From assembly GCA_031267615.1 (NCBI GenBank), contig JAIRYM010000017.1, forward strand, positions 1 through 42,148: a DNA stretch of 42,148 nucleotides. The letters run 5' to 3'. The position numbers were made by a program, and so were the translations under genes. Shown here piece by piece: positions 4,595-9,444 of the stretch. Position 1 is the first letter of the stretch. Each line of letters starts with the position of its first letter. This DNA is from Dysgonamonadaceae bacterium (GTDB taxonomy: Bacteria > Bacteroidota > Bacteroidia > Bacteroidales > Azobacteroidaceae). A model generated the notes under the pieces. That model was not told where the DNA came from. It ran no database searches and worked only from the letters and a program-made list of their open reading frames with translations.

Positions 4595-5068
4595 CTAAAT
4601 TTTTTTCTTATTTTTTCTCGAACACGCACTGCAAATTCCGTAAATATTGAGGCTATAATGTGTTGGTGTAAAGCGTTTCATGCCATTATTGGCAATGAAT
4701 TGAATTAGACCGGGGTCTTTATATTCCATCACTTTTTTGCACGAATTGCAGATAAGATGATGGTGCAGATCGTTACCGTAGGTGTGCTCGTAGACCGAGA
4801 TGCTTTTACCGAACTGATGTTTCTGAGCGAGATGACATTCGACTAGCAATTGCATTGTGTTATAGATAGTTGACCGGCTCACGCGAAAACTCTGCTTTTC
4901 CATTTCCTTATAAAGCCATTCGATGTCGAAATGTTCCTTATTACTGTAAACCAAATCAAGAATGGCGTAGCGTTCAGACGTTTTGCGGCAATGTTTCAAA
5001 AATAAAAAATTGTCGAAAAGCGTTCTGACTTTTGTCTTTATATCAATTTTTTCTTTTTCCTTCGTCAT
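4595..5068 (-). CDS. Fur family transcriptional regulator
   Basis: RxSRSTIYNTMQLLVECHLAQK, HHHLICNSCKKVMEY, GICSACSRK: Fur fold with CxxC zinc motifs. Confidence 0.92.
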   Translation of the reverse strand: MTKEKEKIDIKTKVRTLFDNFLFLKHCRKTSERYAILDLVYSNKEHFDIEWLYKEMEKQSFRVSRSTIYNTMQLLVECHLAQKHQFGKSISVYEHTYGNDLHHHLICNSCKKVMEYKDPGLIQFIANNGMKRFTPTHYSLNIYGICSACSRKNKKKI

Positions 5069-5086
5069 TGTGCATAATCATTTATG

Positions 5087-7135
5087 TTAATCATTATATG
5101 TCGGCAGGGGCGAATAATCGCGGGCGTAACGCATCATCTGCTCTGCAAACCCTTCGGTATAAGATACTTTCACAGCACTAATTTTTCCTTCTGCGTCGCG
5201 TACAGCCTCGTAAACGGGATTGATAAAACCCTTGTATGGCGCGATACCGAGAGCGTTGTAGCGGGTTTTTACTTCGCGGTGCAATTCGGCGTCAACTTTC
5301 ACGGCGTAATTCTCGACAAGCGCTTGTGCAGCAGTAAAATCGCCTTCTGACTTAATCCGCTGAATTTCAGCAAGCAAATTCCCAATAAGCGTCCGCATTT
5401 TTTCGTAATCGTTGATGACGACGCAAGTTTTGTTATATTCGTTCTTTTTGATTTCTACAACTTTATCGGTAGCGCCTTTTTCAAGCACCCAATGGGCTAT
5501 AAGCGAGCGGTTTCGCATGTGAGCCTCTTCTATTTGTTTGCCCAAATCAATGCGGGCGAGTTGTGTCATCAAGCCATTCATCATATAGCGGTAATATTCT
5601 GATTTATAAGCCTCTGCATTGTCAAGCAGTCCGAGTTCGAGAATTTTTGCATCAGGCATATAATAGAGTCCAAACAAGTCGGCGCGCGCCTCTTCGATAG
5701 TCGATCCATAGACTTTCAGCGCATCCTGGTCAACTCCAGGCAGGAGTTTGCCAGAACCGTGTCCGAGACATTCGTGGAGGTCGGTATGGAGATTGTCGGT
5801 CTGCGAGCCATATTTTTTTATGAGTTCTTTTTCGTAGTCGCAGCACACAAATTCGTCAATAAATCCGTTGCCTGCCGCCGCCTTGTCATAGGCTTCGGTA
5901 ATGTTTGTAATTGTAACAGATTTTGAGCCGTATTCTGTGCGTATCCAATTTGAATTAGGCAGGTTAATGCCGATAGGTGTTGTCGGATAGCAGTCGCCCC
6001 CTAGTATTGCCGCCGTGATTGCCTTTGCGCTTACACCTTTCACTTCGTCTTTCTTAAATTTCTTTGCTACAGGTGAATGGTCTTCAAACCATTGCGCATT
6101 AGTGCTGATGGTGCGGGTTTTGTCGGTCGATTCGATGTCTTTGAAATTGACGAGGGCTTCCCAACTGCCTTTCAATCCAAGCGCATCGCCGTATGATTCG
6201 GTAAATCCGTTCACGAAATCGACTGTTGATTCGGTGTCTTTTACCCAAGCAATGGCGTATTCGTCGTAGATTTTAAGCGAACCGGTGCGGTAGAAATTTG
6301 TGAGTAACGTTATAACTTGCTTTTGTTCTGTATTTTCGGTATATTGTTCGGCTTCTGTGAGCCAATAAACTATGCGCTCAATGGCAAGCGAATAAAGTCC
6401 CTCAATTTTATAAACTTGCTCTGTGAGTTTGCCGTCCTGCTTTATTAAGCGGCTGTTAAGTCCGTAAGACAAAGGGCAATGGTCGTTGGGGTCTTTCTTG
6501 GTGCCGTAGAAACGTTCTACATCGTGCTGCGTAACGCCTTCGCCATAGTAATTATTAGCAGACGAAGCGATTACATCTTTTCCGCTGTTCTGCTCTACTT
6601 TTTTTGCATATAGCGAGGGAGAGAAAATGACAGGCGTGATTTCGGTAAGAAAATCATCAACTGTCTGTTCTTCGCGCACAGGTAACAGTTTTGCATCTAT
6701 CGATTTAACCGCATTTCTAAAAAATTCTTCCGAAAATGCTGGGAGAAATTTTTCCTGCCCGTAGTGATGATGAAATCCGTTGGAAAACCAGACACGTTTC
6801 AGATAAACGAGAAATTCTCGGTAATCGGTGCTTGCAGTATCGCTTTTGCAGTTTGCATAAATTGCTTCGAGGGTGCGGCGTACAGCAAGGTTGTATCTGT
6901 TGTTCTGGTCGAAAAGGATGTCGCGGCCCCAGAGCGCAGCTTCGTTGAGACAATAGACGAGCGCTTTTTGATTGACCGACAAACTGTCCCAGTCAGTAGC
7001 CTGGAAACGCAGAACGCCGAGGTCGGCAAACTGTTCGACGTTGTAGTTGAAGTCGTTTTGCTGCTTTGGTGCCTGTGGTTGAGAGCAGGCGAAAAGAATT
7101 GATAATGACATAATTGCAACAGTTAATTGTTTCAT
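5087..7135 (-). CDS. Dipeptidyl-peptidase III, M49 family, putative lipoprotein
   Basis: HECLGHGSGKLLPG (HEXXXH zinc motif of M49), EEARADLFGLYYM, lipobox LSILFACSQ. Confidence 0.93.
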   Translation of the reverse strand: MKQLTVAIMSLSILFACSQPQAPKQQNDFNYNVEQFADLGVLRFQATDWDSLSVNQKALVYCLNEAALWGRDILFDQNNRYNLAVRRTLEAIYANCKSDTASTDYREFLVYLKRVWFSNGFHHHYGQEKFLPAFSEEFFRNAVKSIDAKLLPVREEQTVDDFLTEITPVIFSPSLYAKKVEQNSGKDVIASSANNYYGEGVTQHDVERFYGTKKDPNDHCPLSYGLNSRLIKQDGKLTEQVYKIEGLYSLAIERIVYWLTEAEQYTENTEQKQVITLLTNFYRTGSLKIYDEYAIAWVKDTESTVDFVNGFTESYGDALGLKGSWEALVNFKDIESTDKTRTISTNAQWFEDHSPVAKKFKKDEVKGVSAKAITAAILGGDCYPTTPIGINLPNSNWIRTEYGSKSVTITNITEAYDKAAAGNGFIDEFVCCDYEKELIKKYGSQTDNLHTDLHECLGHGSGKLLPGVDQDALKVYGSTIEEARADLFGLYYMPDAKILELGLLDNAEAYKSEYYRYMMNGLMTQLARIDLGKQIEEAHMRNRSLIAHWVLEKGATDKVVEIKKNEYNKTCVVINDYEKMRTLIGNLLAEIQRIKSEGDFTAAQALVENYAVKVDAELHREVKTRYNALGIAPYKGFINPVYEAVRDAEGKISAVKVSYTEGFAEQMMRYARDYSPLPTYND

Positions 7136-7137
7136 GA

Positions 7138-8538
7138 TTATTTGAAATAATAGATTGTATCAAGTAAGATGGGATTTTTTTTCAGAGTTGCAGTTGATAT
7201 GGACACTGTTTTTGTTATCAATGTTTGCAAATCAACAATAATTCCCAGTGTATGAGGATGTGATATTGCATCTGTAAGATATTGATAATTGTCGAAAGTT
7301 AAAGTATTGTCGTTTATTTTTATAAAAATATCACCTCGCTTTAAACCTGCCTGTTCTGCCGGCGAATTTGGAAGAACGTATGTTATTGTTCCACAAAGAA
7401 TCTGATTGTAATAGAGTAGTTGATAATCATATCCGGCATCATAATTGACCCCTACAAGCATATCCTGAAGTTTGTTATAATCATCTACTATAAACGAAAA
7501 ACGGTCGCCTTCATACAAAGATTCATGAAAAAATAAATCAGGCGAGAGCGATTTATCTATATCTTTATGAAGTTTGTCATTCCAGAGATAAAAATAATCT
7601 AATTGATTTATGATCCATTCATTAATATTTTCATAATTATTGCCGGCTGTTTTTAAATTCATTTCAACGTATGCATTACCGCGAGAATAATAATTGTCAG
7701 GCAAGTAAGACGTTTCAATCGAAACATTATCTGAAGAACGTGCCGAAGAATGTACAGAAGTCATTTTAGTTACTCCAATATCATTAAGAGCAAAGAAAAG
7801 CAATGGATCGTGTTCAATATCACCCAACGGTGCAAGCATATAATCAAATTCATTAAAATAAATATCGGGAATAAATCCGTTGCTATAATTAGAAAAGCTA
7901 TCTTTATTCGACAGTTCCAGTACAATAGGCTGCATACCCCAACTGTTATTGATTTCGTTTTCGGCAGTAATAGATATAGAACCCACATTTTTACCGACAG
8001 TTGTATCGCCAATGAGTATTACGTCCATATAAGGTTTCAATCCGTTGATGACAGCCTCACTTGCCGATGCTGTTCGTTTTGACGTCAGAACATATAAACG
8101 ATTCAATCCTAATTTATTTATTGCTATATTACCACCATCAATTTTATTTACAAAATAGCTTTTGTTGTCATATTGTCCTGTTTTTGTGATATTATCGTTA
8201 AACCTGTATTGCTGGAACACATCGTCAGTCTTTCGATTGGAAATCATACTTGCCAGATATGTCGCCATTGAAAGCGCACCTCCGCTGTTATACCTCAAAT
8301 CAAGTATTAGTTCACTTACATTTTTGCGTTTAAACTGTCCGAAAGCTTCGTTCAGCTCTTTGACATACTTTTTGGATTTATCGCCGTCGTCTTCTGCAAA
8401 AAAGTTAAAAACAAGGTATCCTATTCTTTTTGTACCTGTTTTATTACTTTCCTGTTCGTCATCGCACGAAACAAACACTGCCGTTAGCATTAGCAACAAG
8501 AATGAATACAATAATAAATTAGTCTTTGTCATAGTCAT
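7138..8538 (-). CDS. S41 family peptidase with apparently circularly permuted domain order
   Basis: Lipoprotein signal, then GYLVFNFF...LILDLRYNSGG...TASASEAVINGL...GDTTVGK; the cap (NEWIINQLDYFYLWNDKL) and PDZ (ITYVLPNSPAEQAGLKRGDIFIKIN) follow the catalytic half. Confidence 0.9.
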   Translation of the reverse strand: MTMTKTNLLLYSFLLLMLTAVFVSCDDEQESNKTGTKRIGYLVFNFFAEDDGDKSKKYVKELNEAFGQFKRKNVSELILDLRYNSGGALSMATYLASMISNRKTDDVFQQYRFNDNITKTGQYDNKSYFVNKIDGGNIAINKLGLNRLYVLTSKRTASASEAVINGLKPYMDVILIGDTTVGKNVGSISITAENEINNSWGMQPIVLELSNKDSFSNYSNGFIPDIYFNEFDYMLAPLGDIEHDPLLFFALNDIGVTKMTSVHSSARSSDNVSIETSYLPDNYYSRGNAYVEMNLKTAGNNYENINEWIINQLDYFYLWNDKLHKDIDKSLSPDLFFHESLYEGDRFSFIVDDYNKLQDMLVGVNYDAGYDYQLLYYNQILCGTITYVLPNSPAEQAGLKRGDIFIKINDNTLTFDNYQYLTDAISHPHTLGIIVDLQTLITKTVSISTATLKKNPILLDTIYYFK

Positions 8539-8621: not shown

Positions 8622-9131
8622 TCACTCAAACAAAAATTCAACTTCAGAAGGCGAGATATGGTATTCCGAAACCCAAGCCGGCTTTTTTGTCAAAGTTACT
8701 GAACAGGCCGGACTTGAACTATCAAGCAGACTGTGATAAGCAACACCCGTTTCAAAATCATCTTTTAAAAAAGGATGTTGCTCCGAATCAGTCGAACAGA
8801 CAGTTATTGTTACTTCGGGAGGGAAAAATCTGACTTTACGATTTGCAGGTACCCCATAACAGATAATCGGCAAAATAAACGTATCAACAGACATTTCAAC
8901 CGTTTTTGCTTGATATTTTATCTTTTTACCTGCAACGACATTTGGTGCGGTAATACTGTCCGGATATTCTTTTGCCTGTTGTGTTTCATGACCACCGTCA
9001 GGCATTGAATAACGAAATACAGCAGCAAGCGCTGTGAATGACAGAAACACTACAACGCTGTTCCATTTTTTGCTGCGTAAAAATATTCGTAGTTGTTGTA
9101 GCAGTCGCTTATTTGGCAACTTGAATGTCAT
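8622..9131 (-). CDS. YbbR-like domain protein
   Basis: Position directly after yajC with 23-bp overlap, single N-terminal TM, YbbR-like β-rich C-terminus; start taken at MTFKLPNKR. Confidence 0.65.
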   Translation of the reverse strand: MTFKLPNKRLLQQLRIFLRSKKWNSVVVFLSFTALAAVFRYSMPDGGHETQQAKEYPDSITAPNVVAGKKIKYQAKTVEMSVDTFILPIICYGVPANRKVRFFPPEVTITVCSTDSEQHPFLKDDFETGVAYHSLLDSSSPACSVTLTKKPAWVSEYHISPSEVEFLFE

Positions 9132-9444
9132 CACTTGATGCGTAAACCGACGCCTTATCAACTTTAATTCTGACTCCATCGGAAATTTCGATGATAAAAG
9201 TCTTTTCGCCTGTTTCTTTTATCTTGCCGTAAATACCGCCCGCGGTAACTACTTTGTCGCCAATCGTCAGACTTTCGCGCATTTTTTGAATTGCTTTCTG
9301 TTTCTTCTGTTGAGGACGAATCATAAGAAAATACATAATGGCGAACAGCAGGATAATCATAATCAGCGGACTCCCGAGGATACCGCCAAGACCACCTGAA
9401 CTTGCAGGAGCAGGGTCTTGTAATAAAATAAAGAGATTTGTCAT
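9109..9444 (-). CDS. yajC: Preprotein translocase subunit YajC
   Basis: LIMIILLFAIMYFLMIRPQQKKQK...LTIGDKVVTAGGIYGKI. Confidence 0.95.
   Translation of the reverse strand: MTNLFILLQDPAPASSGGLGGILGSPLIMIILLFAIMYFLMIRPQQKKQKAIQKMRESLTIGDKVVTAGGIYGKIKETGEKTFIIEISDGVRIKVDKASVYASSDDIQVAK

What the first reader, a model, noticed from the sequence alone, without database searches (positions are those of the whole stretch)
7138..8538. S41 peptidase with circularly permuted architecture
Seen directly: after the lipoprotein signal the ORF begins with KRIGYLVFNFF...ELILDLRYNSGG...RTASASE...GDTTVGK...PLGD...GVTKMTSVHSSARSS (catalytic half plus the usual C-terminal end). It then continues into NEWIINQLDYFYLWNDKL...DRFSFI...ITYVLPNSPAEQAGLKRGDIF...NPILLDTIYY (usual N-terminal cap plus PDZ) and stops. 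In the Bacteroidetes S41 lipoproteins I recall, NPVLLDT-type sequence leads directly into KxGYLVYN, so the two ends here match at that point. The probable Ser158/Lys183 dyad keeps the 25-residue spacing of E. coli Tsp (S430/K455), so it may be active. A tandem duplication followed by loss of the outer halves would explain it.
Basis: partly seen in the sequence, partly recalled or inferred. Interest (0 to 1): 0.75.

Follow-up and report, generated by a model that had tools for sequence, protein, structure and literature searches.

The report
Circularly permuted S41 lipoprotein protease gene
In one uncultured Bacteroidales-type bacterium, a common cell-surface protease gene has its two halves in swapped order while keeping every residue that is invariant in its normal-order relatives, so it looks like a rare and probably still working natural protein rearrangement.

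Summary
The 466-aa ORF at 7138-8538(-) carries a lipoprotein signal, then the S41 catalytic half with its C-terminal tail, then the S41 N-terminal cap and PDZ. About 70 distinct relatives from the genus, order and class, where both halves could be placed, all run cap-PDZ-catalytic; only this gene is reversed. The swap is exact: canonical relatives run from the equivalent of residue 464 straight into residue 34-37, and the cut falls in a 2-residue turn of a predicted beta-hairpin. The old C-terminus is joined in frame to the old N-terminal linker. The gene sits in the conserved S41-M49-Fur neighbourhood where sister species carry the canonical ortholog; no other copy of this subfamily is in the 88%-complete bin. 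Both halves fall in the same clade. All 41 columns invariant among 25 canonical proteins are kept, including Ser158/Lys183. The joins share no word over 7 bp, which argues against overlap misassembly, but no reads could be checked. Best explanation: a lineage-specific circular permutation, probably via tandem duplication and truncation, giving a probably active protease whose PDZ now ends the chain. New variant of a known kind. The permutant's structure model is only moderate; fold and activity remain inferred.

The parts
7138..8538 (-). permuted S41 peptidase gene, 466 aa plus stop
   Evidence: ORF and translation; Pfam order
8464..8538 (-). signal peptide and lipobox, aa 1-25 (FVSC, Cys25 would be lipidated)
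   Evidence: read from the translation; the same type of signal precedes the cap in canonical relatives
8431..8463 (-). junction J1: linker aa 26-36 (DDEQESNKTGT) joining the signal directly to the first catalytic strand KRIGYL
   Evidence: comparison with canonical relatives, where the linker leads into the N cap
7651..8430 (-). catalytic half and conserved C-terminal tail, aa 37-296; Ser158 (8065-8067) and Lys183 (7990-7992)
   Evidence: PF03572 at 38-226; tail aligns with canonical C-termini ...VRRNTYI..KL
7630..7650 (-). junction J2: aa 297-303 (TAGNNYE), old C-terminus fused in frame to the old cap linker
   Evidence: canonical proteins stop at the left side and begin (after the signal) at the right side
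7492..7629 (-). S41 N-terminal cap, aa 304-349
   Evidence: PF18294, 38.9 bits
7183..7446 (-). PDZ domain, about aa 365-452
   Evidence: PF17820 at 384-423; VIA-align to PDZ structures over about 361-460, Z about 9-10
7138..7176 (-). junction J3: aa 455-466 NPILLDTIYYFK and stop; strand that in relatives forms a hairpin with KxGYLxYN, now the C-terminus
   Evidence: canonical model strands 201-209 and 212-219 flank the cut; tblastn boundaries
5087..7135 (-). M49 dipeptidyl peptidase III-type gene, starts 2 nt after the S41 stop
   Evidence: PF03571; the same gene lies downstream of canonical S41 in G018, G025, G026 and, a little further away, G017
4595..5068 (-). Fur-family regulator, conserved third gene of the neighbourhood
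   Evidence: PF01475; synteny in G018, G025, G026

Best explanation
The gene is a genuine circular permutant of the NF058627-like S41 lipoprotein protease found in its genus. It arose in this lineage at the orthologous locus, in place of the canonical copy. Shown: the swapped order, exact cyclic closure, same locus, same clade for both halves, all invariant residues kept, no other copy in the bin. Inferred: the fold is kept. The new ends are the two strands of an opened beta-hairpin after the PDZ, and the old ends are bridged by a short linker. The mature lipoprotein would be anchored to the membrane just before the catalytic core's first strand, with cap and PDZ at the C-terminal side. PDZ binding of a substrate C-terminus would still feed the Ser158/Lys183 site, but the covalent strand link from PDZ to core is cut, so PDZ control would act through packing only. 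Origin is most likely a tandem duplication fused in frame, then loss of the first cap-PDZ and the last catalytic half.
For: Reversed domain order against about 70 canonical relatives. Canonical joint 464 to 34-37 with few codons between. S41-M49-Fur synteny with canonical S41 in sister species. Only one subfamily copy in the bin among five S41 loci. Both halves in the same genus-level clade. 41/41 invariant and 59/63 near-invariant columns kept, similar to leave-one-out canonical rows. Cut in the turn between predicted strands 201-209 and 212-219 of the canonical ortholog. Tandem S41 pairs exist in the order, one with the two genes in one frame a few codons apart.
Against: One metagenome bin only; no second species has the order. 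AlphaFold for the permutant is moderate (pLDDT 66.6, pTM 0.55) against 84.5/0.84 for the canonical ortholog, though its alignment was unpaired and the signal peptide was left on. The gene is more diverged than its neighbour M49 predicts: S41 44-50% where M49 is 74-76%, against about 52% and 72% between other pairs, which could mean relaxed selection. Distance between the old termini was not measured.
Confidence: 0.72

Rival explanations
1. Assembly artefact: the true locus holds a canonical gene or a tandem pair, and short-read assembly or chimeric molecules produced the swapped order.
For: The source is a 128-contig, 88%-complete bin, and the order is seen once only. Tandem pairs of these genes do occur in the order.
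Against: Three separate joins are needed, all in frame or at the stop and all at domain boundaries. Overlap misjoins need long shared words, but the joins share at most 7 bp (31-78% of random pairs in the gene do as well) and no long repeats are present. No left-over canonical or half copy lies elsewhere in the bin.
Confidence: 0.13
2. Real rearrangement but a decaying pseudogene: the permuted protein is not functional.
For: Faster divergence than the neighbouring M49, a long branch in both halves, a modest structure model. Another genus member has a copy of this gene broken, most likely by an insertion element, so loss is tolerated in some lineages.
Against: Intact signal peptide, 466 codons without stop or frameshift, 41/41 invariant columns kept. 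The permutation age is unknown, so a very recent event could look intact.
Confidence: 0.12
3. Real permutant, but made by fission and fusion: cap-PDZ and catalytic halves were first separate genes and were re-fused in the opposite order. This is a rival for the origin only.
For: The cut is at a clean module boundary. An N-half-only ORF exists in G009.
Against: The G009 half is most likely an insertion-element break at a contig end, not a free-standing module. No split pair was seen in the relatives checked. The old C-terminal tail and old cap linker are both kept at J2, as in-frame duplication would give.
Confidence: 0.1

Closest known systems
NCBIfam NF058627 (GFO_1087 family putative carboxy-terminal peptidase) and the canonical genus orthologs (G018, G025, G026, G017)
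   Same: Same S41_N, PDZ and S41 modules, same catalytic dyad, lipoprotein signal, same M49-Fur neighbourhood
   Different: Order is S41 then S41_N then PDZ; the family profile matches in two swapped pieces
PDB 3k50, putative S41 protease of Bacteroides fragilis
   Same: Closest solved structure by sequence and fold
   Different: Canonical order; in the aligned stretch it lacks the TASASE serines of the window protein (alignment)
CtpB, CtpA and Prc/Tsp C-terminal processing proteases
   Same: Ser-Lys protease core with a PDZ that binds substrate C-termini and controls activity through hinge strands (PMC6686036, PMC8764530)
   Different: There the PDZ sits between N-terminal region and core, tied at both ends; here it ends the chain
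Known natural circular permutants such as swaposin and DNA methyltransferases (PMC3320104)
   Same: Permutation by gene duplication and truncation is the textbook model
   Different: None of the papers found describes it for S41 proteases; here canonical sister orthologs sit at the same locus

Membership tests
MEROPS S41 / PF03572 | S41 catalytic domain above curated cut-off | tested here: met
   79.3 bits, cut-off 24
MEROPS S41 / PF03572 | Ser-Lys dyad 25 residues apart in the TASASE and TxGK motifs | tested here: met
   Ser158, Lys183; both columns invariant in relatives and kept here; 25 apart also in Prc Ser452/Lys477 (PMC6686036)
Bacteroidota S41_N-PDZ-S41 lipoprotein subfamily (NF058627-like) | S41_N cap and PDZ present | tested here: met
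   PF18294 38.9 bits (cut-off 25.9), PF17820 36.9 bits (cut-off 27)
Bacteroidota S41_N-PDZ-S41 lipoprotein subfamily (NF058627-like) | order cap, PDZ, catalytic | tested here: not met
   reversed here; all of about 70 relatives checked are canonical
Bacteroidota S41_N-PDZ-S41 lipoprotein subfamily (NF058627-like) | NF058627 curated cut-off of 455 bits | tested here: not met
   324 bits, but canonical genus orthologs also miss it at 389-396 bits, so this shows distance rather than permutation
Circular permutant | both segments homologous to one relative in swapped order, with cyclic closure | tested here: met
Circular permutant | same three-dimensional fold as the canonical protein | tested here: inconclusive
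   catalytic half and PDZ each match known folds, but the whole-chain model is weak
Circular permutant by duplication | double or partly truncated intermediate in a relative | tested here: inconclusive
   tandem pairs only, no fused intermediate in the genomes searched
C-terminal processing protease | cleaves substrates through PDZ-bound C-termini | not testable with these tools
   needs an assay

The most novel reading that the evidence does not exclude
A young, lineage-specific and active circular permutant of a PDZ protease, in which cutting the covalent link between PDZ and protease core has changed PDZ gating: a natural experiment on how PDZ domains control C-terminal processing proteases.
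Probability: 0.35. Interest if true: 0.65.

Novelty: new variant of a known kind. Interest (0 to 1): 0.52.

Why it matters
Natural circular permutations are usually inferred between old, distant proteins. Here canonical orthologs sit at the same locus in sister species, so the event can be placed on one branch and the before and after proteins can be compared directly. It also breaks one of the two covalent ties of the PDZ domain in a protease family whose PDZ control differs between members (stimulatory in Prc, inhibitory in CtpB; PMC6686036).

Tried and rejected
Common domain order for the subfamily: rejected. Chimera of two different paralogs: not supported, both halves fall in the same clade, though the exact position inside it is unresolved. 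Site-specific or repeat-mediated rearrangement: no long direct or inverted repeats at the joins; the 7-bp shared word AAAACAG at J1 and J2 is not above chance. The N-half-only ORF of G009 as a fission product: rejected, it is most likely an insertion-element break. Mixed half-alignments A1, A3, A4 and A6 were partly misaligned by MAFFT and not used for claims; A5, used for the model, still misplaces about 8-13 residues at the start of the N fragments. The single genome-contig scan gave only a canonical Prolixibacteraceae gene.

Full report
What is there. The window ORF at 7138-8538(-) codes for 466 residues. After a lipoprotein signal (FVSC, Cys25) it runs KRIGYLVFNFF...DLRYNSGG...TASASE...GDTTVGK..., then a tail AYVEMNLK, then TAGNNYENINEWI...YLW...DRFSFI..., the PDZ, and NPILLDTIYYFK-stop. 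Pfam gives Peptidase_S41 38-226, Pept_S41_N 304-349 and PDZ_6 384-423. The closest solved structure, 3k50, is matched in two swapped segments.

Order in relatives. Within the 38 held genomes of the genus (the window's own included), twelve canonical genes of this subfamily were recovered. In each, the segment matching the cap-PDZ half lies directly before the one matching the catalytic half; in most the matches run from query 464 to query 34-37 with few or no codons between. The same holds for the order and class samples (393 and 395 genomes). Placing both halves on every locus fetched gave the normal order in about 70 distinct genes, and the reversed order only in the window gene. The other genera of the family held give no match at the threshold used. 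NF058627 matches canonical orthologs in one stretch and this protein in two.

Locus. G018, G025 and G026 have the canonical S41 gene directly before the same M49 peptidase and Fur-type regulator, and G017 has M49 slightly further off. In the window the S41 stop codon lies 2 nt before the M49 start. So the rearrangement happened inside the orthologous gene. The bin has five S41 loci but only this one of the subfamily.

Joins. J1 links the signal and linker DDEQESNKTGT to the first catalytic strand. J2 links the conserved C-terminal tail (aligned with ...VRRNTYI..KL in relatives) to the cap linker. J3 ends the protein after the post-PDZ strand. In the predicted structure of the canonical G018 ortholog (pLDDT 84.5), the cut falls between strands 201-209 and 212-219, i.e. 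in the 2-residue turn of a likely hairpin. All joins keep the frame. They share at most 7 bp, which is not unusual for the gene, and no long repeats lie around them. This fits a real rearrangement better than an overlap misassembly, but reads were not available.

Selection. Both halves group with the genus copies, each on a long branch. Identity to sister orthologs is 44-50%, while the adjacent M49 is 74-76%; for other distant species pairs the figures are about 52% and 72%. Divergence is thus somewhat raised. Yet all 41 columns invariant in 25 canonical proteins and 59 of 63 near-invariant ones are kept, about what each canonical protein itself shows. Part of that conservation predates the permutation, whose age is unknown.

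Fold. The AlphaFold model of the permutant is moderate (pLDDT 66.6, pTM 0.55), with a small unpaired alignment and the signal peptide on. The catalytic half matches 3k50 (Z 20.9, rmsd 6.5 over 234 residues) and the PDZ part matches PDZ structures (Z about 9-10). Assembly of the two halves is therefore not shown.

Function. From the anatomy this is a membrane-anchored Ser-Lys protease with a PDZ. In known relatives the PDZ binds substrate C-termini and controls the active site through hinge strands (PMC6686036), and it is held between the N-terminal region and the core. Here the PDZ ends the chain and its strand link to the core is non-covalent. I infer that it still works as a C-terminal processing-type protease, perhaps with altered gating.

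Origin. Permutation by duplication (PMC3320104) is the simplest route. Both old ends survive at J2, and tandem S41 pairs occur in the order, one pair in a single frame a few codons apart. No intermediate was found, so this is an inference.

Novelty. Natural circular permutants are well known in general. Three literature searches found none described for S41, within the open papers held. I rate it a new variant of a known kind.

Noticed in passing
L043:8168-8912 (G009:C30, contig end): A close relative of the S41 gene is cut at the same PDZ/catalytic boundary (...NPILLDTVYEIRKCP*). The following ~125 bp occur identically at four other places in that genome, including the other end of the same contig, so an insertion element most likely interrupts the gene.
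   Followed up: partly
L084:1735-4305 (G175:C94): Two S41 genes in tandem in the same reading frame, separated by one TAA and a few codons: a natural arrangement about one stop codon away from a fused double S41.
   Followed up: partly
L072 (G212:C39:13094-13555): A canonical-order S41 gene with an in-frame TGA inside the cap region (...EVDK*SWIVDD...); pseudogene, sequencing error or recoding not distinguished.
   Followed up: no
window 8622-9179 (-): A 185-aa ORF overlapping the YajC gene has no Pfam match at E 0.001; by eye it may be a YbbR-like protein. The genes upstream of S41 differ from those of the four syntenic relatives.
   Followed up: no
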